A stretch of DNA of 64,000 bases from Paramacrobiotus metropolitanus (taxonomy: Eukaryota > Tardigrada > Eutardigrada > Parachela > Macrobiotidae). Below, piece by piece: positions 3,289 through 55,649 of the stretch. Positions within the stretch are counted from its first letter, which is position 1; the number at the start of each line of letters is the position of its first letter. Below the pieces are notes generated by a model, which saw nothing but the letters and a program-made list of their open reading frames with translations, made no database searches and was not told the origin of the DNA. A program made the position numbers and the translations under genes. The stretch is from positions 1-64,000 of the forward strand of contig NW_026570352.1 of the NCBI RefSeq assembly GCF_019649055.1, read 5' to 3'.

Positions 3289-4822
3289 CAATGGACACCA
3301 TAAATGTGGTTACACTGGTCAATCGGTCCGCTGACCGACAATTTAATAGCCAAGACCAACAAAAAACAAACAGAAACACAACCACTGCAACAATAATTTA
3401 GCCGCATAGACTCAAATAGTAAATCTTTAGTCACCGATCGTGAAATCACTGTACTGCTAATACTTTGTTCGCGCTCCACCGTTATAGATACACTGATTAA
3501 TTCGATCTCCCATTGAATCAATCAAACTTTTACAGTATTCGGCTGTACAGATGTCATCCCAAGCATCTCTAATAAAGATATCCATTTCTGCCACATTTTT
3601 GGGCAACCTCTGAGCGATGTGGTTCTTCATTCTGCCCCACAGGTTTTCGATGGGGTTTAAGTCAGGAGATCTTGCAGGCCACGGCATCACATTCACTCCT
3701 TCAGTGCCGAAGAATTTGTTCATGACGTTTGATTTGTGACAGGGCGCGTTGTCCTGCTGATAGATCATGTCGCGGCCATTCTCGTCCAGGGAAGGCAGGA
3801 GCTCGTCGAAGAGTACGTCTTCATATTTTTGGGAATTCATCGTGCCTTGAAAGCGGACCAACGACACGGGACCAGCTGCGCAGATAGCGCCCCAGACAGC
3901 GATTCCCCCTTTATTTTGCAGCGACTTTTTCACTTGAAGATTATTTGCAAATCTGTCTTCTCCGCGAAATAAAAATTTTTAAGTTGATAAATTGCAGAAT
4001 TTTGTTTTGTTTGCAATTGTTTTCCGTTAAAAATTGACGCGTTTAAAAAAGTTAAATTATTTGGATTTTTTCTGAATTCCGTATTGTGCATACGTACCTC
4101 AACTCGGCCTCCTGACAGTTTAAAGGTGCATTCATCTGAGAAGATGACAGAGTTGAAAAACGCGGGATCACTCAGCAGCTGCTCTCTCTTCCAGAGACAC
4201 CAGTACACTCTGTCGTCCAGACTCGTCCTTAATCTTATGCTTCGGCGTCAGCTCGTCTGCCACGGCTTTACTTCGTCGCGCGCCAGCTTCGTGCAGTCTT
4301 CGGAGCAGAGTGCTGTAGGACAACTGCATAAGGGCTGCTGCTTTTACGCCGCTCATGGTGCGATTTTCTTTAAGAAACTGGACAACAATTTCATCTTGCT
4401 CTTTCGTCGTTTTCTTCGGTCGTCCTCTTGAATTCTTTTGCTTGATCTCGCCAGTTAGTTGGTCGTAGTTGCGCAGAATCTTGGCTACCCACTGGTGCGA
4501 CTTGTCAAACACTGATGCGACTTTTCTCACGCTCTTTTCTTTTGCATACAATCTGAAAACCGCTTTCACCAAATCTGCGTCAATATACTTTCCAGGTGCC
4601 ATTTCACGGCATTCTGAATAAACAATATCCAAAACCGGAAGAAATGAAAAATTAAAGATTACAAAACGAAATAAAGGGAGCTGAAACACGAACAGCAGAA
4701 GGCCGACAAGAATTCTTATTTTTTAGCCGGCGGCCGATGGCCAGCCGGAAGTGGCTGTGCCCGAACAGACAAGCGCTCGGTTGCGCGCTAATTGAGTGTA
4801 ACCACATTTATGGTGTCCACTG
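3289..4822 (-). mobile_element. Tc1-type transposon with 28-bp terminal repeats
   Basis: Terminal inverted repeats occupy 3289-3316 and 4795-4822 and differ at one base. Each is flanked by TA (3287-3288 and 4823-4824), the target duplication of the Tc1/mariner superfamily. Length is 1534 bp. The interior encodes a DD34E transposase on the minus strand. The right end lies only 46 bases from the stop codon of the neighbouring F-box gene copy 1, so the element probably inserted into that gene's 3' untranslated region or just beyond. The two intact ends imply a fairly young insertion. Confidence 0.9.
3457..4602 (-). pseudogene. Tc1-family DD34E transposase, frameshifted
   Basis: The likely start is the ATG at 4602 (MAPGKYIDADLVKAVF). 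The N-terminal part is a paired-type helix-turn-helix region with an AT-hook-like GRPKK linker. The catalytic triad is visible: Asp in FSDECTF, Asp in QQDNAPCH, and Glu in LNPIENLW, with exactly 34 residues between the last two, the Tc1 spacing. Two things interrupt the frame. Near 4215 the reading shifts by one base between KHKIKDE and DDRVYWCLWK. Between about 4092 and 3933 an extra stretch separates GGRVEV from KKSLQNKGGIAVWG. That stretch starts with a GTATGC donor-like site and ends in CTTCAAG, so it may be a short intron, unusual for Tc1 elements. With the frameshift this copy should be inactive. Confidence 0.85.
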
Positions 4823-6379
4823 TACTACGCGTTAGTGGTTCACATCAACCGGCAGTCAATCTGATCCTCATTGGCAGTCGGAGTCGGTGCTGTCATTTGG
4901 CTCAGCGTCGGAACGGTAATCATGATCCAAGTCGGAGGAGCTGCTGGAATCGGACTCCTGGCTATCGTCGGAATTGGATTCGGTGCTGCCATCGGAGTCG
5001 GAACTGTCTTCGGAATCGGAGCTGCCGTCGGAATACTCCCTAGCGGCATCCAAAGGTGTTCGACTCCATTTCTGCACGTAGCGCCACAAGGCATGAAAAC
5101 ACAGTGTGTTCAGCCTGCGAACGTCCATACTGGCTAAAGCGTCCTGTGTCCAGGTGTTGCCACGGTAGTGTGCAGAGGGACGTGGATCGCACGATTGATG
5201 ATCTTTCAGTACCTGCTTATTAAAAAAATCATCACGTTAGGAAAATAGATACAATGAAACAAAACCATTAGAAAACACTGCAGTCATGTGCATAATTCGT
5301 ATTAACACCCCATTAATCACAACTTTGGCACCATGTGCCGGGTCATGTCTCTTAAGCCGGTGTGGAATTGTAATTATAACTCACTGAATTCCTTAGACGA
5401 CGCACTCTCGGTGACATATGCCTGTACCGTAATAAGGACCCGCAAATACCTTTTGGATTTTCCTGGCTTTTGCATTCTTGTCTGTACAACTGGTTATCCA
5501 CTGGGCAATGCGATTCATATCTAACGGCAGTCCCCCGCAGCACAGGTGCTGCTCAAATATATCCCAAAAGTGTGCTCCTTCCACATTTCCCAGAATGAAA
5601 ACCGCAAGCGGAAAATAGAATTTCAATAAAACCGCACCGTTATTTCTTTCGCATCTCAAGGAATAGTTTTTCCAAATCAACCGGCCACAACAGGTCGCCA
5701 ATTTGGAGTAAAACGCAGCTATCGTGGCAAAAACCACCTTCAACCTCAACGGCCCGGGCTCCCCCTGATCGATGAGCAGGGATCGGTTGTGCACGATCAA
5801 ACAGTCGATGCGAATGCCGCCCTCATTCAAGACCTTCTTAATCAACTTCACAGCTTCATCGGCGTTTTTCACATCGTCACGATTGTCGCATTCCCATTCA
5901 GCAGCTCGAATGCAAATGATTCGCGCTGCGGGAGTAATGTGCTTAAAGATGCAACTGTACGTGGCATAATTACCGTTCCATTTCTTTACGAGCCGCGGTG
6001 AGAAAGGTGGATGCTCCAGCGATATATGTACAACGTGGCACATCTCAGCCGATGTGAGAATGGCGTCCCATAGTTGACAAATCCGCCGGCAGCGCTGTCG
6101 TTCGATGGTGTCCAGTGACCGAAAGATTTCCTTTAAGAGTTCTATGGGCAGGGCCGTACCATGCCAATCCGCATTCAGTCCGTCTTCCCGATGTGATTCA
6201 CTCGCTACTTTTCGGAGGCGGCAACAGTCATCCATGAAGAATTTGCCAAGATGAACGAGTTTACATCTTTTTCTTTGAAAAAATTCCGCCTACGGAAAAA
6301 AGAAATGTCAGTACCTGTCAATCTGACCTTTTCAACTGTGGCTAATAAAAACGTTTTAATAACTCTTTAATTCGTTGGC

Positions 6380-6436
6380 CATCGCAAAACTGCCGGCCCG
6401 GCAGTTTTGCGATGCAGTTCAGAGCCGGCTCTGAAC
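6380..6436. repeat. Two adjacent palindromes
   Basis: 6380-6396 and 6398-6414 are 17-base perfect inverted arms separated by one base. Immediately after, 6417-6436 is a 20-base perfect palindrome centred on GCCGGC. Both lie in intron 1 of F-box copy 1, just outside the foldback element, and may be the terminus of another element. Confidence 0.7.
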
Positions 6437-6479
6437 CGGGCAATTGTTGGACAGTGACGCACGTTAGTAACAAACTGTA

Positions 6480-7170
6480 CTCGTATTACTGGATTTTCGA
6501 CCACTATTCGAGACCCACATCGACATCGACCGTGTACTATTTTTTTTAAGCCAAACCTGACCACGTTTTAATGATCAGCGAATTTTCTGATGCAGAAAAT
6601 CTTTTTCAAAATTTTTTTCCGAACAAAAAAATTCTGACTGCCAGCCCCCTAGGCCCCCCCACAGTACCGTGGGCGGTAGCAATGGAATCAAGCAAAAATT
6701 TTATTTTTTTACACAGTTTCTAGGTAACTTAATAAATATGTAATAACGCTGAATTCGAATTTGATGTAAAAAAACTGATATGAGCAGTGTGGAGCAACCT
6801 TTTGCTGAGAAGGATGTCAGTAATCGTTCTTACACATCAATTGTGTAAGTACCTGGTTGTTTTACGTTAATTTTTTTATACTCAGCTCATACCATATTTT
6901 TAACATTAAATTCGAATTCAGCGTTATTAATTTAACTAAAAACTGTGTAGAAAAGACGAAAATCAAATTTTTGCCCCTGATCTCATTGCTATTGCTACCG
7001 CCCAGGGTATTGTGGGGGCCAAGGGGCTGGCAGTCAGAATTTTGTTATTCCGAAAAAAATTTAAAAAAATGTTTTCTAGATCAGAAAAATTTGCTGATTA
7101 TTAAAACGTGGTCAGATTTGGCTTAAAAAATAGTAGATGGTCGAAGGGGGTCTCGAATAGCCCCTGTCGG
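6480..7170. mobile_element. Foldback (long inverted repeat) element in intron 1 of copy 1
   Basis: Two arms of roughly 230-260 bases, about 6500-6790 and 6880-7160, are imperfect inverted copies. Both contain, in opposite orientation, a stretch around GAATTCGAATTT, a GC-rich block at CTGCCAGCCCC and the run AAACGTGGTCAG. The element sits wholly inside intron 1 (7661-6290) of F-box copy 1 and is absent from the matching introns of copies 2 and 3. No coding frame is evident. Exact ends and target duplication were not resolved by eye. Confidence 0.7.
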
Positions 7171-8869
7171 CTTGTGAAGCTGAAGGCAAGAGGAGGGAAA
7201 GGAGCACAGCCATGACGGGTTCAACAATGCAGGGAAAGTGTCCACCAACAAAAATATATAGACGCGTGTGAATTCACGGAAATTTTCGCTTGCCCGCGCT
7301 CCCGAACTCTTTCAGGATTGTATTATGAGTTTGTACTAATGTACCCCCAATAATTACACACTGGCACGAAAACCGGTTGCGCTACCGAAATGAGTTGCGA
7401 AGTTCTGGGCGAACAGCCTGCACTCCAGGTCGGTGGCTTACCCCAGTAGGAATATAACAACTCCATTTACGACGGAACCACCTTGATGACATTGGAAGAA
7501 GGGGGCTGGAGAGGCCAGGGAGATAACGCGAAAATGTGCAAGAGTGCCACTGAAAACCTTCCACGGCCGCAGATGCAATACTCGCACATTGATGTTTTTT
7601 CGCTCACCCCCCCCCTAAAAATCCGCCTAAAGTGAAAACTCAAGTTACGACAACGACTTACAATCGTAGCATCCCCTAAAGGATTTCCGGCACCCAGGCT
7701 GCATGTAGTGCATCTTCTGGCTGCGAACGTACGTAAATCGCACACGAAACTTTCGCTCAATTTGGCGGAGTAATTCCACGGCTAAGCAGTGTTGCAGAAT
7801 CCAGTATCCGTCCGGCACACTACATGTCCCCATGACGAAATCACCCGGCAGAAAACGCTTATGCGGCAGTCGTTTTTCCGAAAGCGTCCGACGAATCTGT
7901 TTATCGGGAAGCAATTCGCGAAACCGCTGTCCATTCATTAATACCTCCACCAGCGTATGGTCCCATAAGTTCTCGAAAGGATTGACGAGAATTCTGCCGA
8001 GATACCATTTCCATGTGCCACCCGGATGATCGAATAATAGCACCTCCACAGTAGCTCCTCGGCGCCGTCCCCAGGGGGGAGGTGTGGAGCAACTAATTAC
8101 CTTCCCGTAGTCAACTGCCACTGACTGCTGTGCGGGGCATCCAAAGTCGATGATCAAACGCGGGGGAATGCTTGCGGATTCTTCCAGGCCAACGATATGG
8201 CCATGCTGCAACAGACCGTCGACTTCAACATCCACAGCATCCCATGCATACACAGACCGCGTACCGTCTTCGTAGATATACATGAGAGACTTTCTCTGGC
8301 TGCAACGCAGGATAAAGGTTTCAGCAAAACTGCAAAAGTGTTAAACTGCAACTTGCAAGCACATACGTTATACGTAACAGTTAGTCTAGATTAAGACATT
8401 TGCAGTGTCTGGCACTAGTACTTTACCTGTAAAACTCAGTTGTAAAGAAATTTAACGAAATGTCCCGTTAAAGAGGTTGAATAGATTAACAGAATCATTT
8501 TCACTACTATTTACTCGAGAAATTAGTGGCAGTTGGCAATATAGTAAACAGAGAGGACGTGGACGAAATACGTTTTCAGAATTCTTTCTGCGCACAAGTG
8601 TGCTATCTACTATAGTACGTATCTACTGCTATGCCTATGCCACGCTATGGCACTATGGCAGTATGCCGCAAGGCCCGCAACATGCATGCGCTTTCGAGAT
8701 CGACTTCCGATGAGTCACCTCTCAGCATAACAGTCGTACGCAATAATACTACTACGTCGCTGTGGTTGAGTCGTGTCTGCTGTGAGTGTGAGTACACTGG
8801 TACACAGCAGCGAGCGTGTTGTGCCGGTAGAAACTAAAATTAATGATAAAACACATCTTGCGTATTCTT

Positions 8870-10090
8870 ATTAATTACTTACCGCCTGGTTGAACAAAGT
8901 TTCGGTTTGGTTATTAAAGCACGCCGGGTCAGTCCCAGGCTCACTTGGTATCATGTCAGTTTCATCCGAATGATCAATACTTATAACAGAAAAAGGGAAA
9001 TTTAAACAATATCGTACAAAAGTGTGACATTTTATTAAAATTATTTTTTAAAAAAGTTATGAGACAAGATGGTTTCCGGAAAACAAAATTCTGAATCACT
9101 ATGTCCATTTTTAATTGAAAAACTGCAGTTATTCGACAAATTTCAGTAAAGTAAGTGGCATGACTGGCATTATTACAGTGTTGCAGGTAGAAAGCTAAGG
9201 CGTTTCCTTTTTTCATGCAAAAAAACTTCAAACCTTGGCTGAAAAGCGTTGGCTGCTCACTAATGCAGCGGCATTCGAAACGTGGTATGATGCGCTTGGT
9301 AAAGCAAAATTCCAGCAGCCCTTCAGTTGTCCAGAGGAGTGGATTCGAAGCATCGAGCCAAGTTTGTGGAAAAGCCAGACTGATTAACGAAAGAAAGGTA
9401 CAAAAATTATATGGAAACTAGTGCGATATTTGTTACTTAATTTTATATTTTATTTTTAGGTTCTGTTGAGCGTTCGTTCGATTTAGTGGATGTTGATTCC
9501 GACGAATGATCACCGGTAAGGTTTGGGTTTTTATCGTGACTAACACAATATCAGTTTTGCATATTCACATTTCACAGCAGACAAAGAAGAGCGGTTCCAG
9601 CACTACTGGATGAAGCAATTGTTTGCCGCACTGGAATCCGTCAGTTGGTTTTGCTTATTCCTTTTTAGTTGTTAGCTTCAAGACCAAAATAAATCGACTT
9701 AGCCAAGACGCCGCTTACCACTGTTTTATTTGCATCGTTGCGTTATTATGAGGCGCGTTTGTGCTTAAGAACATGATGACAAAACGTGTAATGGCAAATT
9801 ATTAGAATGCTGTTTTAAACTTAATCAGTGCTATAATTTATCATTGCGATCGATGTTTGTTCACAATTCTTACCACAAGACGGATTCAGAAATAACACAA
9901 GGAATTACCCACGCAATTTGCTAGCGGTCACGTTTTGATGCCATGTTAGCAAAATGCCGGGTATAAAGTGTATTCGCTACGTGAGGTGTGCAGTTTGTCT
10001 TTTGGCTTATCACTTTGATTTGGCTGTCTTACAAACGCGCCAAAACAGCTATTTATTAAAAAATTCTTCGTTTAACTAATTTCCGGAAAA
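8870..10090. other. No confident gene
   Basis: A plus-strand frame at about 9204-9387 (containing AEKRWLLTNAAAFETWYDAL) looks protein-like but has no convincing acceptor or partner exon. On the minus strand, 8980-8887 reads as an open stretch ending in a strong GTAAGT donor (FNQA before the donor), possibly an isolated exon. Neither could be joined to a gene. Confidence 0.3.
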
Positions 10091-10096
10091 AAAAAC

Positions 10097-10557
10097 ATGG
10101 AAGACAATCGATTGACCTTTGAAACGAAATTTGGCATTGATGCTTTTATTTGTCCGCGACTGTTACAAGAAATTCCCGTTTGTAGAGCGACCTTCCTGTC
10201 GCACTGAACTGATCCAGGTAAAAAACTAATAAGTAATGGAAATAATTTACTGAAGCAGATTATTCAGTTTTAGTTCGCCAAAACATTTTCATTCTTTTCC
10301 AGGCTATTGATATGCTTTCCTCCGATCAGCCGGCTACAGACACAGAACGTCATCTCGAGGAATATTTTCCCTTGTGCGACACTGAGTATGACGAGCGTGA
10401 ATCCTTGGTCTCCTCCGCCTGCCATGAAATATTGCCCTTTGAAGTGCAAATATCGAAACGGTTCCCGAGGCTCCTCGACTTTTGTTGCCAACTCATAAAC
10501 CGCCCACAAAGGCCACGGTGTTTGAATCAGATGGCACCTCACGAAATGTCGTTGTGA
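10097..10557 (+). CDS. Possible two-exon hypothetical gene
   Basis: An ATG at 10097 opens MEDNRLTFETKFGIDAFICP and continues to a TGA shortly before a good donor (GATCCAG/GTAAAA, about 10218). After a TTTTCCAG acceptor near 10302 an acidic frame follows (AIDMLSSDQPATDTERHLEE... ) and ends at 10557. The in-frame TGA before the donor means that either the first exon belongs to a different splice form or the gene is broken. No domain was recognised. A further protein-like frame at about 11465-11649 (NHIPRNRQLFYVNRLIYRRN) after an ACACCAG site could be a later exon, but this is not shown. Confidence 0.25.
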
Positions 10558-10734
10558 TACAGAAAACGTGCAGAGGATGCCGTTTTATTTTTGGATACGA
10601 ATGCACCTTTAGCGACTCGAAGACGACAACTTGATTATTTTAAGACACAAGGGATACAAGCAGTACATTAACAGCCAGCGTCCGTGCAGTGACACTGGCA
10701 CTGGCTATAAAGCAGAATAATGGTGGAACAAGAA

Positions 10735-11392
10735 GGGTACGAGGACGGTACAGTGGATGGTTTAGGATACAGCGTCGGTACAGTAGGTACGAATAGGACA
10801 CAATGTCGTTACACGGGTTAGAGGCGTACACAGTGGATACAGATTGGGTACAAGCTTGTCCGGTAATTTCCTACGTAAAGGTACAGCTAGCGCGAAATTT
10901 GCGCTTATAACGAGGCCACTGCACTACGTTTATCAAATTTCCTAAATGCGCTCCGTAGGCAGATTGTCGCTTACTGCACCGACCATTTTCTAGCCACCTT
11001 CCGCCAGGCAGTTACTATTATCCTCATACAATTGTATGGCGTGTACCAAGCCACCAGCCAGTCAAATGCAAGTTACGTGTTTAAACAGTGTGGCGTGGCG
11101 CGCCGTAGTGTGAAGTTTGGCGTAACACGCAAATTTGTGTAGATCGCTGTATTGATTCGTCAGAAATTACCGGACAAGCTTGTACAGTGTCGGTATAGTG
11201 GTTACACTTAGGATACAGTGGATACAGTGTCGGTACAGCGGATACAGTGCAGACACAGATTGTACAGTGTCGGTACACCGGGAACAAGGCAGATACAGTG
11301 GATAGAGATTGGGTACAGTGTCGGTACAGTGGGTACGAATAGGATACAGTGTTGGTACAGAGGATACAGTGTCGGTACGGATAAGTTGAGAA
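10735..11392. repeat. GGTACAGTG-type minisatellite flanking an inverted-repeat insert
   Basis: Degenerate units of about 10-14 bases built on GGTACAGTG and GGATACAGTG occur at about 10735-10850 and 11185-11392. Between them lies a block bounded by perfect 23-base inverted arms at 10848-10870 and 11163-11185, whose outer ends merge into the minisatellite. The arrangement looks like a small TIR element with tandem subterminal repeats, or an element inserted into an existing array. Frames read through the array are repeat artefacts. Confidence 0.75.
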
Positions 11393-11649
11393 GCCCTAAC
11401 TCGTGCCATCTCTCTCACCCACGGCGAATCAAAGAGAAACTTCCAACTTTGCAAAAATGTAACACCAGGGCCGCCGAGCAAGGGCTTTCTTGGTTTCGTC
11501 GGTTCGAGGCTGTTCTAAATCACATTCCAAGAAATCGTCAGTTGTTCTACGTCAACAGACTGATTTATCGACGAAATCAGTCCTTGACCACCGGAAGTTA
11601 TGCCTGGGATGACGGATCTTGTGTCGACGAAGTTAACGCTACAGTTTAA

Positions 11650-12160
11650 TCGAAGCCGGCTTGAAACTTTAGTTACTTTTGGAAGGGCTTTAACATCTTG
11701 TGTGTTAACGTTTTCCTCGCTTTAATGTGCTAATTGTAGTTCGTTCGGTAATCGGGTAATGCATGTTTACTATTTCTCAAGTCGGTATTTCAATTTGTTG
11801 ATTTGCTTGAATTTTCTCGTGTTACTCGGTCAAATTGTCCATCAAGGCATGCTGACGTCAGTCTATAAGTAGTCCATTCGTCAATAATAACAAACTGACC
11901 GTCGTTAATCGTTACATGGTAAACCATCCCTCGTTTATGGAAACAACTGCTGTTATTTTCTGTCAATACGTCAATATTGACATATCGACCGGCGCAAAAG
12001 GGAATAGAGTCGAGGTGATAGGCGAGCTCCCATTTAATCTTCGTCAATATGTCAATATTGACAGATTGACTCAGACGAGCGCGCGCTGTCTTTAAAAAAA
12101 TAAAACAAACGTGCTACAAAACTCGCCACTACTGAACTCTAAAACGTCAAAGGTCATGGG
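11650..12160. other. No recognisable gene
   Basis: No convincing coding frame. The motif GTCAATATTGACA occurs at about 11969-11981 and 12046-12062, a local repeat containing the palindrome GTCAATATTGAC. Confidence 0.4.
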
Positions 12161-12428
12161 ACCACGTAGGGTACATATATGAAACAGTGAAATGAGCAAC
12201 AGATTAATAACAGCGAAAACCCGGTTTAAGTTGACATTAAGTCATTAACTATTTCTGTTTGCCCACTGCACACTAGCTGTACTTATATAGTAAGCTTACT
12301 TCATAAGCTCAAGCGGTATGGCAACAAGACAGTGCAAGAATAATAAGTTGATGCAGTTACTCGAGTACGTGTGTCGACAGTTCACATCGTTCGGTTGTCT
12401 ACTGATCCACTTTGAAATCCAAGCTATC

Positions 12429-15400
12429 CTAGAAATCGGAGTCGGTGCTGTCATCAGACTCGAAGCGGGAGCTTTCGTTGGAATTAATCTGGCTGTCTTC
12501 GGAATCGGGGCTTTCGGTAGAATCAGAGTTAGAGAGGAAGCTGCCGTCGGAATCGGACTGCCCGTTGTCTTCGGAAGCGGAACTGCCGTTAGATTCGGAG
12601 CCATGGTTAGATTCGGAACCGGAGCTGTCTTCGGAATCGGGACCCTCGCTGGAGTCCGTAGCGTCATATAAAGGTGCTCGATCCCATTTCTGCACATAGT
12701 GCAACAAGACATGTAAGCACAACGTGTTCAGCTTGCGGACGTCCACGCTGGCAACAGCGCCCACTGTCCACGGATCTTCCCGTAAATTTGCAGAGGGACG
12801 CGGATCGCACGATTGAAGATCGTTCAGAATCTGATGTCAAAAAGTCAATAACATTAGGAAGAGAAGACACAAAGCTGTCCGAACAGACCGCAGCCGTTTT
12901 ACGATATAGAAGTCGGATCAACAGTGGAAAAACATCATTTTATTAGTGCCTCACTGCCTTCCGTCTTCCGAGCTTTGGTGCATGTAGTGATAAATTCATC
13001 AAAATTTGTACAAATATAGACCATTTTGGACCGAATTTGAAAATATGTCATCGGGAGCAAATTGTTGTTGTGTGCTTCATATCTCCCGTATCGTTCACGT
13101 TCAAGCAATTTCAGGACCATGTAAATATTGTTTAGGCTCTAAAATGACGTACTAATAAAAACTGAAAATAATAATAAATACTATTAAAACAAAATATACC
13201 AATATAAAGTACCAATAACGATAAAAGGACGTAGTAATTAAAAACAAAAAAGGGTTGGGGTTCACGAACGCGACAGTTGAAGTGGACTCGCGCGAAAATG
13301 ATACCCTATGAGGCCACAGCTACTTCTCTTGAAATATATTTTATTTTAAAACCAGTTTTGCAAAAAATCTATGAGATACCAAAATGCGAAGCTCAGATAT
13401 GAAGATTAAACATAAGAAAAACTTTTGGCGAATTGCCATGTGCAGCACATAAAACCTTGTAAATACAGTACCTTTTGGATTCTCCTGGTTTCGCACTCCT
13501 GTCGGTGCACCTGGCTGTCCACTGGGCGATGCGGTCCATATCTAACGCCGGGTCCCCGCAGCGCAGGTGTTGCTCAAATATATCCCAAATCTGTGCTTCT
13601 CCCACATTTTCTAGAACGAACACTGAAACCGGAACGCGGAATTCCAGCACTTTCGCACCGCTGCTGTTTTCGCATTTCAGGGAATATTTTTTCCAAATCA
13701 AGCGGTCACAGAAGGTCGCTAGCTTGGAATGTAACGCAGCTATGGCGGCAAAAACCATGCTCAACTTCAGTGGACTGGGTTCACCCTGGTCGATGGTCAG
13801 TGATCGGTGGTGGTGATCAAACGCTCGATGCGAAAGCCGGCTTCGTTCAAAACTTTCTGAATGCACGCCATCGCTTCATCGGCGTCTCTCAAATTCTGAT
13901 CGTCGCAGTCTTTTTTAGCATCTTGAAGGCAGATGGTTCGCGTTGCTGGTGAAATGTGCTTAAAAATGCAACCGTATGCGGCATAACAACCGTTCCATTT
14001 CTTCGCGAGCCGCGGTGAGGAAGGTGGACGCTTGTGCGATACACGTACAACTTTGCACACCTCCGCCGAAATTTGAATGGCGTCCCACAGTTGACAGCTG
14101 CGTCGACAGCGCTGTTGATCGATGGTGTCCAGTGACTGGAATACCTCTTTGAAGAGTTCCGTGGGCAATGCCCAACCGCGCCAGTCAGTACCGAACTGCA
14201 TTTTCCTGTCCGGCCCTCCAAGGCAACGAGAATCAGCCGACAAGCATTTGCCACTGCGTACGAATTCTCGCCTTTTCCTTTCCAAAACGTTCGCCTGTGG
14301 TGAGAAACGTAAACATAGGAAACCTGAGTTATTTTATCCGCTCCCAATCACAAATAACGCTCAATTGTTTTTGCCTATTCCAAACCACCGGCTTTGACCA
14401 TAAAAAATTGGGTGTTTACACATGTCAAATCCATTTTCTCATTTTTTGGATCATATTGTGCCTGAGCATCTAAATAATCGGACAAGAAAAGGAAGCACGG
14501 CAGACGGGACTTAAGGAAGATGTCCCGATACAAAGTACCGAATTGTACGTCAGTGACGAACGGGAACTTTCGCTTCCTCGCATTCACGCACCTTTTTTCG
14601 TACTTCGGCATTTGTTAACAACGGGTCACTCTTACGGCACTTCGCATTTGTGACGCTTTACAAGATTCATTGCAAATTTGTTTTCGGTGCAGGTCGCAAA
14701 AAGTTTTCCGCAATACTACTTCTCTTTAGACACGAAATTTCTGCCCCCTCTTCCCTGTCAGAAAACCAGCCACCCCATAAGGCAATTCCCATTCAAAACT
14801 GAGTGTCGTGACAAAAACTTACGATCGTGGCATCGTCCAAAGGACTTTTGGCGTGCTGCTGTATATAGTGCATCTCTCGGCCGAGTACGCCGGTAAATCG
14901 CACACGAAACTTCCGCTCAACTCGGCGGAGCAGCTCCGACGTGAAGCGCTCCTTCAGAATCTAGTTTGGCACTCTGCACGTCCGCTTCACGAAATCCCCT
15001 GCTTGAAGGCGCTTACGCTGCATTATTTTGTCCGAGGGCCACCGGCGAATCTGTTCGTCGGGAAGCAGTTCGCGAAGAAGTTGCCCGCATAGCAGTATCT
15101 CCACCAGTGCTTGGTCGTATAAGTTGGCGAAAGAATGGATGAGGATGTTGCCGGGATACCAGGTCCATGGACGACCCGGGTGATCGAACAGCAGCACCTC
15201 CACAGCTTCCTGATGCGGTTGGAAGGATGAAGAGGTGGAGAAGGTAAATACCTTCGCATAGTCAACCAGCACCGACCGCTGTGACGGGCATCCGAAATCG
15301 ATGATCAGGCGTGGCGAAATATTAGCAGACTCTTCCAGGCCAACGATATGGCCATGCTGGAACAGACCGTCGATTTCAACATCCACCGCATTCCATGCCT

Positions 15401-15434
15401 GTACAGACCGCGTACCGTCTTCGTAGAGATACAT
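12429..15434 (-). pseudogene. Tudor-like/F-box/acidic-tail gene, copy 2 (nonsense and two frameshifts)
   Basis: Exons are 15434-14823, 14294-13472 and 12830-12429, with the same splice positions and phases as the other copies. Exon 1 (MYLYEDGTRSVQAWNAVDVE) lacks six bases found in copy 3, and the next Trp codon has become TAG (bases 14963-14961), after CRVPN. The frame beyond is open to the donor. Exon 2 carries the F-box (LPTELFKEVFQSLDTIDQQR...CQLWDAI). It has lost one base near 13812 (after FRIERLI) and another just before the donor (DRSAKPGE against KNAKAR in copy 1). Exon 3 is open: a conserved head (LNTLCLHVLLHYVQKWDRAP) and an acidic Ser/Asp tail. Three independent lesions make this a pseudogene, a young one because the rest is intact. 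Confidence 0.8.
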
Positions 15435-16283
15435 AGTGGACTTCTTTGGCTACGAAGCAGGCCACAATCTTTAGCAGAATCATCGAACTGCTTGACAATC
15501 AAGTACATACGCTGAATCAACAACTGTAATACTTAATGAAGCATAATCCGTAAAAGGAAAACTTGTTAAGAAGTAATTGTAGTTGTTGTTAAGAAGTTTA
15601 ACCAGCTGACCCGTTACAGAATAATTGACTCCAACTGAAAATTTATTTGCTATTTGCTCCGCATGAGCTATTTGGTAGCTCCAAAAAGCGTCCAACTGAA
15701 AATACTGAGCCAGGTAAATAGTGACTTATGCCAAAAGAGAAGACCTGTGCGACTGTGCGGAATACTTCAGAAAAATCGATAGTGCTATTATTTTCTCCGC
15801 ACTAGTGTGCTCTGCAATAGCAGGCATACGCTGATATTTTGCATCACAATTTTAATATTGAACGAGAGCGGCTGGAATTTACCGGCTCGTATGCAGCCGT
15901 CGAATCGTGTCTGTAGCCGGTCGAGTAGCGCATATTGAAGTGCTAAACAAGCAAAAAATATACGATAAGACTAAAACCCACCTTACGTATTTGTGTTAAA
16001 GAAAAGTGTGAAATACATACTTCTAGTGAACAATGTTGCATAGTGGATCAGAAATTAATACTACTGTAAAGTCCAAAAACAAATATGAGATCCTTTTGTG
16101 CCGGTCAAATTTAGTGTTTTGTAATCGTCCCGCTTTGTCGATTGTCCACTATCGATTATTCATGCAACGTCTGCCAACGTGGTCCAACAGTAGACTGCGA
16201 AAAGGTGTTACAACGCGCGCAACGAGGCACTTTTCTGTACTGAAACAGCCAAATTCATGATTGGCCATCTGCCTGCTGGTATT

Positions 16284-16653
16284 AACACTTGCACCTTGCG
16301 CATTTCCCAACGAAAGCCATCGACCGATATCTCAAACGAAAGAGAAACAAATTTCAAGAATTTTAATACCAAGCAATTTGTTTTTATGGGATCTAAGGAG
16401 AATCGACGCACCTAAAGTTTCTCGTAGACATAGCATAGGATTTGAATCCACGGTTTGGTCCTGTTTGGATTCAGTTTTCACACAGAAATCGTATGCTTTG
16501 TCTACGACAAACTAAAATGGCTCTTTAAAAAATTTTCTTTTACGTCTCATAAAGGATCACCTGTTTGGTACCAAAATTCTTGAAATTTTTTGCTCTTCGT
16601 TTGAGATATCGGTTGATAGTTTTCGTTGGGAAATGCGCAACGTGCAAGTGTTC
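16284..16653. mobile_element. Foldback element upstream of copy 2
   Basis: Arms of about 100 bases at roughly 16284-16390 and 16550-16653 are inverted copies. Both include GGGAAATGCGCA or its complement, a GATATCGGT block and AATTCTTGAAATTT. The element interrupts sequence shared with unit 3 and so inserted after the duplication. No coding capacity is seen. Confidence 0.7.
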
Positions 16654-16799
16654 AACTTCTTGTGTGACCGAATATAACAGGTTTTCGCAGTCCACTGTAT
16701 AGCACAACAGTAACCGGCTCGCCGGCGCCGCCCACAATACGCGAACAATTATGTCCAGACAGTCCAGTGTAGTCGAAAGCGCAGTTGCGCTCGTTTCCT

Positions 16800-17420
16800 A
16801 ATCATAGCTTCCTTCACTGAGACGCTGCACCAGCATGTGATATCGGAGACTCGATTTGTAGGAAGCAGCAAGATCACTGCTGTTAATCTTGATAAAAAGC
16901 GGCAGAATCTGTCGTGTCGATCTGCTATAAAATGGCAGCGAGTATAATGGCGGAGTATTCGTACTGCGTAGTGCGTATCGGTACATCCAACAACCTACGA
17001 TAGCTCGTTTTCGTTTTCCAGATAAGTAGCCGAAATGCGGCACTGCATCCTTAGTCGCCCGCGACACCTTGGAATAGTATGGTACGTTAAACGTCTTTCC
17101 GGGTATAACCTACACGGTTGTGGCATCCCGCAGCACAGACCCGGCGTTTATTATAGAACGATAACACATGGTTTTCGATCGGTAAAACTGAAGGCAGTTC
17201 CTCCGGTTTCTCCGTGACTTTGGAAGCATTGGTCATATCTCCCTACCAGGCACGAAAGACAGGCCGGACATGTAGTGTGATTTTTCGTGCGGTAATTCTT
17301 TCGCCAACTGATCCACTCCTGTTAGAGGAAATCACTGCAGCATTTTGCATAAAAAGTCGTATTTCAATTTGTCGGGATAAAATTCTCCTGTGACCGATGG
17401 CCGATCGGCTTCGCATAAGA
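16800..17420 (-). pseudogene. Relic of the secreted-protein family
   Basis: The minus strand matches exons 3b and 4 of the complete gene at 26.3-23.8 kb at DNA and protein level. Examples are ITLHVRPVFRAW against ITLHVGPIFRAW, TKDAVPHFGYLSGKRK against TEDAVPHSGLSGKR, and ILPLFIKINSS then LSEGSYD against ILPFLIKINGS and LSEGSYD. In-frame stops occur directly after FRAW and within the stretch matching VRTVQIIPG, so it cannot encode the protein. It is truncated at both ends and lies between F-box units 2 and 3. Confidence 0.75.
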
Positions 17421-19847
17421 GATGCATAGAAAACCGGGTGTTTCGGTGTTTTTTTTAACTCTGCGTAGTATTATCATGACTCCGCATTCGGAACGGAACG
17501 TTTTCCGGTTTCATTCTACGAAGGCACTCCGGTTGCTCACTCGATGTGTGCGTGCTTGTTGGCTTTCTGTTCCCGTTGAGTCTGCACCTAAATCCCCCAT
17601 TTTTGCCCCTAAGCAAACAGAACACCGTGTAGCAAGTTTGTTGGATTTGGCATTAACAGGGAACTTTTTTGCGTAATTCTTATTATTTTGGTAGAACAGA
17701 AATGAACAGAATCGTGAGGATGGCTGACGTCTGGAGACGTCCAGCGTCGTGAGAACACGTAAATGTACTAGTGTACAATGTACATGAAACACAAAAGTGA
17801 ACAACATATTAAGGACATCGAAACGCGTTTTAATTGGACCTTAACTATTTCTGTTCGTCCATTGTATCTTCGTACTCTGCTTACAAACATACTAAATCAA
17901 GCGCTATGACATCGTTTTTTTTAGTTAAAGAAGATGGTCGACAGTTCTCCGACTACATACATATCGAAGTTGGACTATGTTTGATCCGCTGTGGAACCGA
18001 GGCTGTCCTAGAAATCGGAGTCGGTGGTGTCATTAGACTCGGCTTCAGAACTGCTATCAGACTCGGAGCTTCCATTGGAATCAGAGCCATCATTAGTAGA
18101 TTCGGTATCGTCGCTGCCGTGCGAATCCGACTCGGAGCTCTCTTCGGAATCGGAGCTGTCTTCGGGATCGGATTCAGAACTGCCACTGGAGTCCGTAGCG
18201 TCATCCGAAGACGTTCGATTCCATTTCTGCACGAAGTGCCACAAGACATGTAGACACAACGTGTTCAGCTTGTGGACGTCCAGGTTGGTCATAGCGCCCA
18301 CTGTCCAAGGATCTCCCCGAAAATTTGCAGAGGGGCGCGGGTCGCACGATTGAAAATCGTTCAGAATCTGCATGTCAAAAATCAATGACATTAGGAAGAC
18401 AAGACACAAAGCTATCAAACAGACCGCCGCCGTTTTACGGCATAGAAGTAGGCTCAATAGTGGGAAAATATCCTTCCAAACATTTGTGTAATATTGAATT
18501 CATCCGAATTTGCACAAATAATGACCAATATTGACCAAATCTGAAATTATTGTATGCAATTGCGAGCTGACGTAGTGGCTTCATATCTCCCGTATGGTTC
18601 ACGATCAAGCGATTTCAGGGCAACGAGAAACCGTTTGGACTATAAAATGATGTAAAATAACGCAAAAAAGTGTTTAGGACTGCATAAGCGCGATAGTTGA
18701 AGTTAATTTCACACAAAAATGATACCCTAATCATTAACGCTACTCCTCTAAAACATTTAATTTAAAGCCAGTTTCTGCAAAAATATACGAGATACCAAAA
18801 TGCGCAGCTCATCTGAGGCGACTTAACGTAGAGAAAACTTTTGACGATTCCCACGTACAGCATATAATACCATGAAAAACAATACCTTTTCAAATCTCTT
18901 AGTTCTCGCATTCCTGTGGGTGCATCTCGCCATCCACTGGGCGATGCGGTCCATATCTAACGCCGGTCCCGTGCAGCGCAGGTGCTGCTCAAATGTATCC
19001 CAAATCTGTGGTGCTCCCACACCCCCCAGGTTGAACATCGTTATCGGAACACGGAATTCCAGCACTATCGCACCGGTGCTGTTTTCGCAGTTCAAGGAAT
19101 ATCTTCTCCATATCAAGCGGTCACAGCAGCTCGCCAGCTTGGAATGTAGCGCAGCTATCGCGGCAAAAACCACCTGCAACTTCAATGGACCGGGTTCACC
19201 CTGGTCGATGGTCAGTGATCGGTGGTGCACGATCAAACGCTCGATGCGAATGCCGGCTTCGTGCAAGAGTTTTTGCATCAACGTTGTCGCTCCATCGGCG
19301 AGTTTCAAATCGTCCTGATCGTCGCAGTCCCATTCCGTGTCTCGAATGCAGATGGTTCGTGCTGCAGAAGTTATGTGCTTGAAGAAGCAACCGTACGCGG
19401 CATAACAATCATTCCATTTTTGGCGAGCCGCTGGGAGAAAGGTGGATGCTTGAGCGATACGCGAACAACTTTGCACATCTCCGTCGAAGTGAGAATGGCA
19501 TCCCACAGTTGACAGCTGCGTCGGCAGCGTTGTCGGTCGATGGTGTCCAGCGACTGAAACACCTCTTCAAAGAGTTCGGTTGGCAGTGCCCAACCGCGCC
19601 ATTTCGTATCGGACCGTTTTTCCTGGTCGGGTCCTTCCAGGCGGCGAGAGTCCTCCACCAGGAATTTGCCATTACGGATGAATTCCAGTTTTTTTCTTTC
19701 GAAAACTTTCGCCTGTGGTGAAGAAAAAGAAACTTCAGAAGCCAGAGTTGGCTTATCCGTGGGCCCATGACAAGTACAGTACTAAGAGCGACTTAAGTCT
19801 CTGACCCAACGCAAAGTTTTCGGCTTTAGCCGCGCAAATGGTGGACA

Positions 19848-20985
19848 GTTGGCTACGTGACAAGTCGTCGCGGGACACTTCGTCTAAAGGACGTTTGGTC
19901 GAGGGACAACTGGTGTTAGGCAGTCGAAAACGACGTTCGCAAGGCGGTCAGCCGCCTTGACATACTTAACATACTTGACATACCGCCTTAGTTAAAAAAA
20001 CTAGCAAAATAGTGTAATTATCTTGGAAGCACCGTTGTCGTAAGTTTTTTGAAGTGTGATCTTGGCGCGATTTAGCGTCGACTTTTAAAGACATTAAACC
20101 AGACTTGCCTGGCTTTTACAATCGTAAGAGAGAAAGAGCAACTGCAAGTCAGAAAGAGAAAACCATTGTTAAATTTTATTGCTGTTCAGCAGTAAACGAC
20201 TTGATCCTAATGCTTTTGTATCTTATACAGACTGTATGTGTCAATGTGTGGAATCGGAGACTAGTTCGGTCCAGCCCCTATATCACACAATCAAAGTGTG
20301 TGATGGGAACTGGAACTATATCATTGTTCGGGTAAAGGAAAGTGAGGGTGAGTGTCCGTGCTGTGATTTCTCTGTGAATGAGCTCCAAATAGAGAGTCTG
20401 TTAGAAGCCGGAGATAGACAACTGGGATAAATAACCAAAATGGTTCTCGCTTGGTTATTATCTCTGCTTTATTTTTGCCAGTGAAAGTGCAAAAACTAGG
20501 TTGACTTATTAGTGTAATATTTGTTATTTAATACCACGTAATGAGTAGCAAATAGATTAGTTATCATTAGTATAGTCACTATAGTGTATCATAATTATTA
20601 GGTCGTCAGTGTTTTCCAAGAAAGGCACTATGTACAAATCAGCAACTTAAATTTGTGTATAATTCATTTAAAATGTAAGACTACGGTTTCAAAAATTTAA
20701 AAATATATGGAAATGTGTAATCTTACATGCCGGTCTCAGTAAAATTAATTCGAAGTCAAACGACGGAGTTTTTAACTGAAATAAAGTTTTTCTTTTAAAA
20801 TAATTGGGTATCCAATTGTCCCGCCGACGAAATGTCTGGCCCCGATGTGTCCGTGTTACCGGATGTCTCGCGACCAAATGTCTCCCGACCAAATTGACAA
20901 GCAACGACTTTTCCAGAAACTAAATGTCTTCGCGACCAAATGTGGCCGACGAAGTGTCCCGCGACGAGATTTTATGCGACGACTT
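19848..20985. mobile_element. Inverted-repeat element in intron 1 of copy 3
   Basis: Left (about 19848-19945) and right (about 20815-20985) regions contain the same motifs in opposite orientation, notably GTCGCGGGACACTTCGTC on the left and its complement on the right. Both are built from loosely repeated units such as GACGAAATGTC and CGCGACCAAATGTC. The element lies inside intron 1 of copy 3 (21612-19713) and is missing from copies 1 and 2. It is a probable non-autonomous DNA transposon; exact ends are unresolved. Confidence 0.6.
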
Positions 20986-21239
20986 GGTCGGTCACGGGAC
21001 AGTTACAAACGTGAATTTGTATTCTGCATCTCAGCTACCCCGGTTTTTCGGTTGAATGCGCTTTGTGCATCTAAATGATACGACGAGAAAAGAGCATGGC
21101 AGACAGGCTTTAGGGACAATGTTCCAGTGCAATATATCGACCCATCAGTACGCAAACGGGAACTCGCGCGCGACCACACGCTCTTCGGCACAGTTTTAAG
21201 ATAGTATGCGGCCAAATTATTTCTATACATTCGGGCGAA

Positions 21240-21590
21240 AACCGTTAATGCGCCCAACCTTCGTTGGGGTACACTGGGCTCTAGATCGGCAGCTTACCGG
21301 AAACACGTGTTAGCTATACTCCCCAGCAGTACGGGAGGCCAGAAGAACGCTGTTTTCAACGGGCCGCGAAAAAACTGGGGAGAGATAAAATATTTCCAGA
21401 CTATTTTCTCCAAAACGAAATTCACAAGAGGGGGAGGGGCACATTCCGAAAACTTTTTTCGGCGGAGGTCTCCGAAAATTCGAAGCAGTATAATAATACA
21501 CCCCTCTTTGGTACGAGATACCTGCCCCCTAACGCCTTCAGAAACCCTCCGACTCGTCCAGAAAGTAGTGCCCAACTGCCCATTAAAAAT
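21240..21590. other. Remaining intron 1 sequence of copy 3
   Basis: GC-rich intron sequence adjacent to exon 1 of copy 3. The two mutually antisense frames across 21294-21594 have no recognisable domain and are probably not coding. It may be a separate repeat. Confidence 0.4.
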
Positions 21591-23159
21591 CTGAATGCAG
21601 GCGATAACTTACGATTGTGGCATCTTCTAAAGGGCTTTTAGTGTGCTGTTGGATGTAATGCATCTCCTGGCCGAAAACGTAGGTGAATCGCACACGAAAC
21701 CTTCGCTGAATATGGCGGAGCAGCTTCGAGGCGAAGCACTCTGTCAGAACCCAGTAGCCGTTTGGCACTCTGCATGTCCGCATTACAAAATCCCCCGGCT
21801 GAACGCGCTTGCGTTGCAGTCGTTTCTCCGAAGACACCGGACGGATCTGTTCGTTGGGAAGCAGTTCGCGAAGATGTTGCCCACCTACTGTTACTTCCAC
21901 CAGCGCATGGTTCCGCAAGTTCGCGAAAGAATTGATGAGGACTTTGCCGGGATACCATTTCCATGGACGACCAGGATGATCGAACAACAGCACTTCCACA
22001 GCTTCCTGACGCGGTTGGAAGGAGGGAAAGGTGGAGAAGGTAAATACCTTCACGTTATCAACCGGCACCGACTGCTGTGTCGAGCATCCGAAATCGATGA
22101 TTAGGCGTGGTGGAATACTGACAGACTCTTCCAGGCCAACGATATGGCCATGCTGGAACAGACCATCGATTTCAACATCCACAGCATTCCATGCCTGCAC
22201 AGACCGGGTACCATCTTCGTACAGGTACATGGTGGACTTCTGTGGATATAACGTAGGTCATAATCTTCATCAAAATCATCTAAAATGCTTGATGAATGAT
22301 AACCAAGTACTTACTTGTTGAAGACAGCTGCAATTCCCGTAAATCTGGACCAGTAAAACTCAGCTGTCACGAAATTTAGCGACCTGTCCCGTTAAAAATG
22401 GTTCAATCGAATTTTAAAACATGTAAGCTATTTGCTAGCTCAGAAAATACAAAGCCCGGTTAATACTAAAGGACTCAAGCCAATTAGCCAAAAGAGAAGA
22501 CCTGGACGACAGTGTGGAATACTTCAGTGTCTCAGGCTAAACCATAACACTGACTTATTATTTTCTGCGCACAAGTATGCAGGCCTGTGCCATAACAGGC
22601 ATGCGTTTATGTTTCATGATAGGGAATGTGAGACGCTCAGACGGGCCAGACGGCACAAAATTATTGAGAGCGTGCCTGTGGCAGTCGCTATGAGCTGTCA
22701 TCTCTCACCATCAGTTTGCCGGCTCGTATGCAGCCGCGGAATCCTGGCTGTGGAGAGTCGAACAGCGAGCAAACTCCGAGAATGTTGAACTGTTAAACAA
22801 AAGAAAAATTAAAATATGATAATAGTTTTGTAATAAGACGCATCTTATGGTCTTTACGTCTTACGTATTCTTGTTAAATTTTGATGTGTGATATACATAG
22901 TGTACAATGCTGCATGGCGGAAAAGAAATTTAAAATTAATACTATTGTGAAGCCCAAAAACAATACTATGATTTCATTCATTACCGGTTAAGTAAATTGT
23001 TGTTTCGTGATCGTCTCGCTTTGTCTGTTTGTCCGCTCGGATTATTTACCCGACGTGGCCCTATAGAACAACAACAACCGGCTCGCCGGCGCCGCCCACA
23101 AGAAAAGTACCGCGAAAAATTTAGCGCTGTCTAGTCGGAAACGGAGTTGCGATAAGCAC

Positions 23160-28102: not shown

Positions 28103-28411
28103 GTAGTAAATGTTAAAATCCGAAGCGTGTATGTACATCCGGAATTCTTCACAGTCGTAGACATTTTCCTCTAGCACGCTTTCGTACGTGATTAAAGCGT
28201 CATTCAACCGCGGCGGAAATTAACGCAGTAATTATTCCACGATTTTCGTATAACTGCGCCAGTTTCTCTTACACATCTACACTTACAAAATCTTGAACTC
28301 CTTTTGTATTGATAACCAGTGCAGCAGCGGCAGTACCTACTGCAGAACAGACTTAGTAATATTTTGCAAGAATCGGCGAATTCGATCACTCTAACACGGA
28401 ATATTTTTACT

Positions 28412-29437
28412 ATGGAAATCATCAACGGTTCAATTGCAAACTTGACTGCGCGCGGATTCGGGAATTCCACAACGCCAACCGGCGCCACGCTTACTCCACA
28501 GTTCGCCGTAAAAACCGTCATCGCTGTCACGTCCTTCATTCTAAACTTCGGCCTCCTGATTGTCCATATTATGCGCCCGGCATATATCAACCATTTCACC
28601 GTGTACCTTCTATTTCTCTACATCGCCAATACCGTGTACTTAGCCGGAGCGTTCCCGTTCATATTCTTGAGCGAAGTCTACAACGTTGAATTTTCTTTCC
28701 AGGGATTAACAACCTGCTTGACCTTTTCTTATTTCCACTGGGTGGTCAGTCTCGTGCCGGTGATGTGTCACATGCTGATTGCATTGAACCGATTATGGGC
28801 GTTGACGTATCCTCTCGGCTACCGGAACTATCATACCAGAAACATGGCATGTTTGATCTGCGTGTTAACTGTGCTGTATGTGCATTTGTTTAAACTGCCA
28901 TCCCTGTTTATGTTCAAGCCAAATGCTTATCAAGTTCGACTGGAAACATCGCAGATTTGCTCCATACCGGTACCACAAGGATATTTTTATTTCACCCGGG
29001 TGGATAGTATTCTGAACCGTTTTGCCCCGCTTTTTATAATCGCCGGTGTCTATGCTTATCTGGTTATTAAACGGTTCAGTAAAAAACTAGGAAAGGTCAC
29101 GGACGCATCGGAAAGCGTTGAACTGGCCAAGAAACTTGAGAACATGGACCCCGGAAATATGTCGCGAATCCACGGAGCCGGGAGGCCGCCGCGGACTGTC
29201 GAACGCAGCGTCGTCCGGCCGTTTCTGATTCTAACGTTGACGACCATTAGTGTGATTATCTGCTGGCTGCCGTTGGATGTTATCCTGTTCTATCAGTGGT
29301 TTCTGATCGGGAAGCCGTCGCTGACCATTTTCACGGTGTTTCAGTACTGTCACATGATGTACATGATTCAGCTGCTGTTTGATCCTATCATGTGGATTGT
29401 CAGCTTCCGCAAGGCGAGAAAAAATCGTGCACGTTGA
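28412..29437 (+). CDS. Class A (rhodopsin-like) G-protein-coupled receptor, orphan
   Basis: A single uninterrupted exon encodes 341 residues from the ATG at 28412. That ATG is preferred over one 31 codons upstream because it is followed directly by a typical glycosylated N-terminus (NGS, NLT, NST sequons). Seven hydrophobic segments are visible. Helix 3 starts with the conserved Cys (TTCLTF) and ends in NRLWALTYP, a variant of DRY. A partner Cys in loop 2 (SQICSIP) allows the usual disulfide. Helix 6 has the canonical CWLP (VIICWLPLDVILF), and helix 7 has DPIMW in place of NPxxY. The third inner loop is basic and short. These features place it in class A at the plasma membrane, probably peptide- or amine-like, but the ligand cannot be read from sequence. 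No paralogue is present in the window. Confidence 0.9.
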   Translation: MEIINGSIANLTARGFGNSTTPTGATLTPQFAVKTVIAVTSFILNFGLLIVHIMRPAYINHFTVYLLFLYIANTVYLAGAFPFIFLSEVYNVEFSFQGLTTCLTFSYFHWVVSLVPVMCHMLIALNRLWALTYPLGYRNYHTRNMACLICVLTVLYVHLFKLPSLFMFKPNAYQVRLETSQICSIPVPQGYFYFTRVDSILNRFAPLFIIAGVYAYLVIKRFSKKLGKVTDASESVELAKKLENMDPGNMSRIHGAGRPPRTVERSVVRPFLILTLTTISVIICWLPLDVILFYQWFLIGKPSLTIFTVFQYCHMMYMIQLLFDPIMWIVSFRKARKNRAR

Positions 29438-49803: not shown

Positions 49804-50481
49804 TGTACATATATGATATATTTTAATAAGTTTGGGGCAGCGGAAGTTTGTTTAACTTAAGAATTTCGTCGCTACAGTCTTACAGGTACAGGTATACCAA
49901 GGAACAAGTCAGTTGAACACATCTGTTACGAAATCATTTTTCCCGTTTTACTGACCGTATTCAAACATTGTCTCCACTGGGAGTTTTCTTAGCTTCCAGT
50001 TTCAGTGGGCGAAATGAAAATGCATGATCGGATATCAAGAGCCAATTTAATCCATGTCTAATTTTCACAGTGAGCAGAAGTCGAAAACTGTTTTTAAGCT
50101 TCTGATCATCACGATTATAGTCGAAACATGGGTAGAGGCAGTCAAAATGGTGTTGCATAGGTGGTATTAGGAGTTAAAGGTGGTAAAAAGATGTACTTGG
50201 ATCCAACAAGATAGTACGGTGGTATAAAGATGGTATATACATGTATACGGAGCTTTTGTTTATTTTCATACATATTACTGTTTGTTCTATACGTTCACCT
50301 TATTCCGTATTATGGTTTGTCCTGTACATGTAAATAATATAGGCAATTGCATATCATAACAGGATTACAATTCACGAGATTCAGGGCATGTTCTAAGACC
50401 ACACCGTGGTCATGGTATTGCGGGGATGCTTATACAAAGATAATGTTGGTCGGAGGAATCTTTGAGCATTCGTTTTGCATT

Positions 50482-55645: not shown

Positions 55646-55649
55646 GCCG

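What the first reader, a model, noticed from the sequence alone, without database searches (positions are those of the whole stretch)
4868..22230. Triplicated Tudor-like + F-box + acidic-tail gene: a possibly undescribed SCF adaptor family
Three tandem genes combine, in fixed exon order, a beta-rich N-terminal domain, an F-box body and a Ser/Asp/Glu tail. Splice positions and phases are the same at every boundary. I know of no described family with this order. A reader-like domain joined to an F-box would suit targeted ubiquitination of a modified partner; that role is inference.
Basis: partly seen in the sequence, partly recalled or inferred. Interest (0 to 1): 0.75.

Follow-up and report, generated by a model that had tools for sequence, protein, structure and literature searches.

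The report
Tardigrade Tudor–F-box gene family, hugely multiplied
What looked like three odd genes belongs to a family of hundreds of tardigrade loci that join a fragile-X-protein-type Tudor module to an F-box, probably a large repertoire of adaptors that mark proteins for destruction.

Summary
The three tandem three-exon minus-strand units are real, but the window shows a sliver of something larger. In the host genome (assembly statistics fit the tardigrade Paramacrobiotus metropolitanus) exon-1 relatives occur at 350 or more loci on 76 contigs (a lower bound). The exons form one gene: of 247 exon-1 loci with an F-box exon within 5 kb, the nearest is downstream on the same strand in 220; three loci carry both domains in one open frame; exon-1 and exon-2 divergences correlate at r = 0.91 over 24 loci. 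Exon 1 is a tandem Tudor module of FMRP/FXR type: six distinct FMRP/FXR sequences are the six best hits among 177,635 PDB sequences, best E = 2.5e-5. Exon 2 matches the F-box model in 31 of 31 members. Most likely the family encodes SCF substrate adaptors, with conserved Tudor and F-box modules and a fast-diverging C-terminal region. My searches of the paper library found no description of it.

The parts
7662..8283 (-). copy 1 exon 1: tandem Tudor module; 622 nt to the homologous donor, phase 1, out of step with exon 2
   Evidence: 67% identical to copy 3 over residues 1-196
5450..6289 (-). copy 1 exon 2: F-box and C-terminal body, open frame of 280 codons
   Evidence: Pfam F-box E=2.5e-6, 27.6 bits against a cut-off of 20.5; AG/GT borders
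4868..5212 (-). copy 1 exon 3: conserved DPRPS..W..LN..C core, Ser/Asp/Glu tail, stop
14823..15434 (-). copy 2 exon 1: tandem Tudor module with an in-frame TAG
   Evidence: TAG at the same residue in the C8 copy
13472..14294 (-). copy 2 exon 2: F-box exon with a frame break near 13,812-13,816
   Evidence: also broken in C8
12428..12830 (-). copy 2 exon 3: conserved core and acidic tail
21613..22230 (-). copy 3 exon 1: tandem Tudor module, 206 codons, open, phase 0
   Evidence: first row of A1/A6, the profiles that find FXR1/FXR2/FMRP
18886..19712 (-). copy 3 exon 2: F-box exon with one frame break near 19,420; the same exon is open in C8
18008..18367 (-). copy 3 exon 3: conserved core and acidic tail

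Best explanation
A lineage-expanded family of SCF (Skp1-Cullin1-F-box) substrate adaptors. Each gene encodes about 550 residues: an N-terminal FMRP/FXR-type tandem Tudor module, an F-box, a fast-diverging ~190-residue C-terminal region, and a conserved ~45-residue end module with or without an acidic tail. Shown here: domain identity, one-gene structure (from DNA), exon order, mostly phase-0 introns, copy number, purifying selection. Inferred: the F-box docks on Skp1/Cul1; the well-conserved Tudor module binds a partner common to the whole family (or mediates self-association); the variable region after the F-box picks targets, so that the array of copies samples many substrates.
For: 350 or more exon-1 loci on 76 contigs, 249 of 350 within 20 kb of another. 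Of 247 exon-1 loci with an F-box exon within 5 kb, 220 have the nearest one downstream on the same strand; within 1 kb 168 of 169. One open frame spans both domains in L003, L004 and L060. Distance matrices of exons 1 and 2 correlate at r=0.91 over 24 loci, 0 of 2000 permutations as high. Intron 1 phase 0 in 39 of 44 modelled loci, intron 2 in 34 of 44. F-box match (E<=10, best 2e-9) in 31 of 31. Six FMRP/FXR sequences are the top six PDB hits; hhalign 94.5%, E=8e-8, and 100 column shuffles score far below. dN/dS 0.18-0.53 in 18 comparisons. Mean pairwise identity: Tudor 1 0.57, F-box 0.58, region after the F-box 0.31. Skp1 is present, 4 loci.
Against: No expression, protein or binding data. 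AlphaFold models of exon 1 and exon 2 were unusable (pLDDT 34 and 36). Pfam's Agenet model reaches only E=0.04, under its cut-off, in 2 of 45 members. The FMRP chains themselves score only E=0.046-0.085; FXR1 and FXR2 carry the significance. Skp1 has 4 loci, far fewer than the adaptors. 48 of 295 exon-1 loci had no F-box exon found within 5 kb, and in 27 of 247 the nearest one lies upstream or on the other strand. 22 of the 150 exon-1 rows listed contain a stop.
Confidence: 0.72

Rival explanations
1. The genes are real but no longer act as SCF adaptors: a decaying or self-spreading array maintained by duplication, with mostly neutral copies.
For: All three window copies are broken as assembled; 22 of the 150 exon-1 rows listed contain a stop, and frame breaks come on top.
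Against: 25 of 46 modelled loci read from ATG to stop through two phase-0 introns (the sample was chosen for open frames, and one of the 25, L048, has a doubtful short exon 2). dN/dS is below 0.55 in all 18 comparisons. The F-box is among the best-conserved parts.
Confidence: 0.13
2. The Tudor module is the substrate reader: it recognises methylated lysine or arginine on a partner and the F-box destroys it. Not exclusive with the best explanation.
For: FXR1/FXR2 tandem Tudors bind trimethyl-lysine histone peptides weakly (PMC2970552, passages and Discussion). The pocket glutamate and one tryptophan are kept in 34 of 34.
Against: The aromatic Y95 equivalent is Val in 30 of 34. The Tudor module is among the conserved parts, while the region after the F-box diverges; in the nematode families the divergent region is the one said to bind substrate (PMC8665587, passages).
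Confidence: 0.25
3. Exon 1 and the F-box exon are separate neighbouring genes co-amplified in tandem.
For: No RNA data; 48 of 295 exon-1 loci lack a detected F-box exon within 5 kb.
Against: Three single-ORF fusions; GT..AG sites at homologous places and mostly phase 0; the first 42 residues of exon 2 are its least conserved part, so no conserved start of its own; r=0.91.
Confidence: 0.04
4. A shuffled or convergent Tudor pair, not related by descent to FMRP/FXR. Not exclusive with the SCF-adaptor role.
For: Identity to FMRP/FMR1 is about 19%; the KH0 region shows no match; the Tudor-1 match on its own is modest.
Against: The match covers both Tudor repeats in order and register, Tud1 with Tud1 and Tud2 with Tud2, and no off-diagonal segment pair exceeds its shuffles; the next best PDB family is at E=1.
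Confidence: 0.2

Closest known systems
FMRP/FXR1/FXR2 N-terminal tandem Tudor (Agenet) domain
   Same: Two Tudor repeats in the same order and register; one Trp and the Glu of the Tud2 pocket kept in 34 of 34
   Different: No detectable KH0 or KH domains, an F-box instead; Y95 of the FXR1 pocket replaced by Val in 30 of 34; the same genome has a separate FMR1 gene with Tudor pair, KH0 and further KH regions
Caenorhabditis F-box-FBA2 and F-box-FTH expansions (PMC8665587, PMC5041008; passages)
   Same: Hundreds of clustered, tandemly duplicated F-box genes in one lineage with a divergent region after the F-box
   Different: Those have the F-box at the N terminus and FBA2 or FTH behind it; here a tandem Tudor precedes the F-box and neither FBA2 nor FTH is among the Pfam matches
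Fbxo4-FXR1 pair (PMC5688124, start of abstract in the search listing)
   Same: Links an SCF adaptor with an FXR protein
   Different: There FXR1 is the substrate of a separate F-box protein; here the FXR-type module and the F-box share one chain

Membership tests
F-box proteins (Pfam PF00646) | F-box motif matched by the curated model | tested here: met
   31 of 31 exon-2 members match at E<=10, best 2e-9; window copy 1 27.6 bits and copy 2 24.6 bits against a cut-off of 20.5; scores of each of the other members were not listed
SCF substrate adaptor | binds Skp1-Cul1 and presents a substrate | not testable with these tools
   Skp1 present, 4 loci; no binding data
FMRP/FXR family | tandem Tudor (Agenet) pair | tested here: met
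FMRP/FXR family | KH0 after the Tudor pair, then KH1, KH2 and C-terminal RNA-binding regions (order recalled) | tested here: not met
   C-terminal part of exon 1 against KH0: score 9.7, 30 shuffles 8.1 +/- 1.6, maximum 12.1; only two sequences in the KH0 target; exon 2 gives the F-box, not KH
Tudor methyl-lysine readers | aromatic pocket (FXR1 Y95, W, V66, E104) | tested here: inconclusive
   Glu 34/34, Trp 34/34, Tyr/Phe 26/34 at the next site, V66 site Val 23/34, Y95 site Val in 30/34; the paper's 'W97' does not fit the chain sequence, so W78/W79 were used
Pfam Agenet PF05641 | score over 27 bits | tested here: not met
   2 of 45 members match, best E=0.04; window copy 3 14.8 bits
Caenorhabditis FBA2/FTH F-box families | FBA2 or FTH domain after the F-box | tested here: not met
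   neither is among the 9 Pfam families matched by the 31 members at E<=10

The most novel reading that the evidence does not exclude
Tardigrades built, from an FMRP-type Tudor pair and an F-box, a several-hundred-member intracellular recognition repertoire: a constant Tudor dock plus a variable target-binding region, serving defence or proteome turnover, parallel to but independent of the nematode F-box arrays.
Probability: 0.35. Interest if true: 0.82.

Novelty: new variant of a known kind. Interest (0 to 1): 0.63.

Why it matters
Large F-box expansions are known from nematodes (PMC8665587, passages) and plants (PMC3719486, start of abstract in the listing). One in a tardigrade, built on a fragile-X-type Tudor module, would probably be among the largest gene families of that animal: 350 or more loci, broken ones included, against 24,903 predicted genes in the assembly it appears to be (PMC8277472, passages). 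It would give an independent case for testing why animals multiply degradation adaptors, and a new context for the FMRP-type tandem Tudor, whose in vivo function still had to be worked out according to the FXR structure paper of 2010 (PMC2970552, Discussion).

Tried and rejected
AlphaFold of exon 1 as a single sequence and of exon 2 with window fragments gave pLDDT 34 and 36; no fold search was run on them. KH0 behind the Tudor pair looked plausible by eye and was rejected by the segment test. A BC/SOCS-box reading of the exon-3 core (my guess from its L-xxx-C pattern, motif recalled) was dropped: no Pfam support and no meaningful PDB match. Viral and prokaryote collections: no relative by single-protein scan, which finds close relatives only. 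Literature: searches for tardigrade, F-box, Agenet and Tudor combinations listed no paper whose title or abstract start describes this family; only open-licence PMC papers were searched, and the three papers holding both 'tardigrade' and 'F-box protein' were not read.

Selection to be aware of: the 40 paired loci were picked by me from 89 for open frames and spread, so the intact fraction is biased upward. A1 used 32 of 36 usable exon-1 models plus 2 window copies, A2 30 of 31 exon-2 models plus one window copy, A3 25 of 30 exon-3 models plus three; the rest were left out for doubtful modelled ends, one as a near-duplicate. For the count I entered only the rows that looked new to me; hits on one strand less than 400 bases apart were merged. 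One dN/dS comparison (L007-L010, exon 2) failed.

Full report
What is there. Three three-exon units lie in tandem on the minus strand between 4,868 and 22,230. Exon 1 encodes a domain of about 206 residues, exon 2 an F-box and a body of about 280 residues, exon 3 a conserved core and a Ser/Asp/Glu tail. Homologous exons differ with dN/dS 0.31-0.47 in 9 comparisons, so they were coding sequences under constraint.

State of the copies. None is intact as assembled. Copy 1 has exon 1 in phase 1 at the homologous donor but exon 2 at phase 0. Copy 2 has a TAG in exon 1 and a frame break in exon 2. Copy 3 has one frame break in exon 2. Contig C8:1037500-1057200 is a 98.6% identical inverted counterpart of window 2471-22700, apart from a rearranged stretch around copy 1 exon 2, probably the other haplotype. 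There, copy 2 has the TAG at the same residue and a broken exon 2, copy 1 has the same sequence before its donor and further breaks, and copy 3 has an open exon 2 but a broken exon 1. Copy 3 is therefore probably a working gene, copy 2 a pseudogene, copy 1 doubtful.

Which genome. Its size (169.8 Mb) and longest contig seen (C1, 4,484,719 bases) nearly equal the published Paramacrobiotus sp. TYO assembly (170.48 Mb, longest scaffold 4,484,941; PMC8277472, passages); G000 has 533 contigs against 684 scaffolds there. Window GC is 42.5% against 43.46%. P. metropolitanus is described as a model with a reported 170 Mbp genome in PMC11191345 (passages); that it is the same animal is my inference. 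The TYO assembly came from Nanopore reads polished with Illumina reads, so single-base frame breaks may be errors.

Size of the family. Each own-genome search scores about 150 of its candidates (769 to 1,026 first-look candidates in the five exon-1 searches). Exon-1 queries from five lineages give 350 merged loci on 76 contigs, 249 of them within 20 kb of another. This is a lower bound for loci, but it includes broken copies and some unmerged haplotypes.

One gene, not neighbours. Using the 295 exon-1 loci exon-2 loci exon-1 loci have an exon 2 within 5 kb. In 220 of them the nearest is downstream on the same strand, where a quarter (62) is expected if side and strand were random; 17 are upstream on the same strand, 10 on the other strand. 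Within 1 kb it is 168 of 169; 48 of 295 have none within 5 kb. Six distant members that first seemed unpaired all have exon 2, and five have exon 3. Nine still more remote members have exon 2 in 7 of 9 and exon 3 in 4 of 9 within the fetched stretch. L003, L004 and L060 hold both domains in one open frame. Intron 1 is phase 0 in 39 of 44 modelled loci (3 without a model, 2 in another phase) and intron 2 in 34 of 44 (6 without a model, 4 in another phase), with GT/AG at homologous places in most. Pairwise divergences of exons 1 and 2 correlate at r=0.91 over 24 loci, 0.87 over 21 without near-duplicates and the divergent clade; exons 1 and 3 at 0.71 over 19, exons 2 and 3 at 0.74 over 24. In my sample, chosen for open frames, 25 of 46 loci read from ATG to stop, median 553 residues; one of the 25 (L048, 387 residues) is doubtful.

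Exon 1 is an FMRP/FXR-type tandem Tudor. A 34-sequence profile found FXR1 (E=0.0054) and FXR2 (0.069) first. A 45-sequence profile put six distinct FMRP/FXR sequences in the first six places among 177,635: FXR1 2.5e-5, FXR2 3.4e-4, FMRP 0.046-0.085, the next family (ARID4A) at E=1. hhalign against FMRP, FXR1, FXR2 and the host's own FMR1 gave 92.5% and 94.5%. Rerun in the box with another column setting the probability was 87.7% and the score 43.9, against a maximum of 20.7 in 100 column shuffles; exon 2 and exon 3 profiles gave about 10. Segment by segment with 30 shuffles each, Tud1 matches Tud1 (18.8; shuffles at most 16.3, so modest) and Tud2 matches Tud2 (33.5; at most 13.6); no off-diagonal pair exceeds its shuffles, nor does the C-terminal part against KH0. 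Pfam's Agenet model alone would have missed it. The host has a separate FMR1 gene: one 630-codon frame with the KH_9 (KH0) match over its cut-off and an N terminus that aligns end to end with FMRP's Tudor pair and KH0 (that KH1 and KH2 follow is my reading of the sequence).

Pocket. In FXR1 the trimethyl-lysine pocket is given as Y95, W97, V66 and E104 (PMC2970552); position 97 of the chain is Ala, so I compared W78 and W79. Family: E104 site Glu 34 of 34; W78 site Trp 34 of 34; W79 site Tyr or Phe 26 of 34, His 7; V66 site Val 23 of 34; Y95 site Val 30 of 34. Methyl-lysine reading is therefore doubtful but not excluded.

Exon 2 and exon 3. The F-box model matches 31 of 31. Mean pairwise identity is 0.58 in the F-box, 0.57 in Tudor 1, 0.42 in Tudor 2, 0.32 in the rest of exon 1, 0.31 after the F-box, 0.49 in the exon-3 core. 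dN/dS is lower in exon 1 than in exon 2 in each of the six pairs where both were compared. The exon-3 core (DPRPS..W..LN..C) has no convincing Pfam family and no meaningful PDB match. The acidic tail occurs in 7 of 31.

Mechanism. Best reading, part inference: the F-box recruits Skp1/Cul1, the constant Tudor module docks a common partner or self-associates, and the variable region after the F-box chooses targets. For the Caenorhabditis arrays the paper assigns substrate binding to FBA2/FTH behind the F-box (PMC8665587, passages); here a similar layout is reached with different parts.

Novelty. Searches of the open PMC library list no description of a Tudor-F-box family or of an F-box expansion in tardigrades. 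Published gene models of the species may well include members; they were not available here.

Noticed in passing
window 3930-4722 (-): Broken transposase-like frames; 4168-4722 has helix-turn-helix matches (Pfam HTH_32, HTH_23, just under their cut-offs), directly downstream of copy 1; looks like a Tc1/mariner-type remnant (type recalled, not tested).
   Followed up: partly
window 48829-63295 (-): Tandem array of related multi-helix proteins (frames 48829-49851, 51237-52295, 54980-55693, 62072-63295) with no Pfam match in the three that were scanned; by eye gustatory-receptor-like.
   Followed up: partly
window 10720-11390: Diverged TACAGTGTCGG minisatellite between copies 1 and 2.
   Followed up: no
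window 28316-29437 (+) and 41472-42512 (+): A rhodopsin-type GPCR (7tm_1, E=1.3e-19) and an ANF-receptor ligand-binding region (E=4e-11).
   Followed up: partly
G000 contig C8:1037500-1057200 (L043, L044): 98.6% identical inverted counterpart of window 2471-22700 with a small rearrangement around copy 1 exon 2: an unmerged haplotype or recent duplication.
   Followed up: partly
window 6583-7088: 75-nt inverted repeat arms (84% complementary) in intron 1 of copy 1; the stretch also aligns in the opposite orientation to C8 beside the rearrangement.
   Followed up: no
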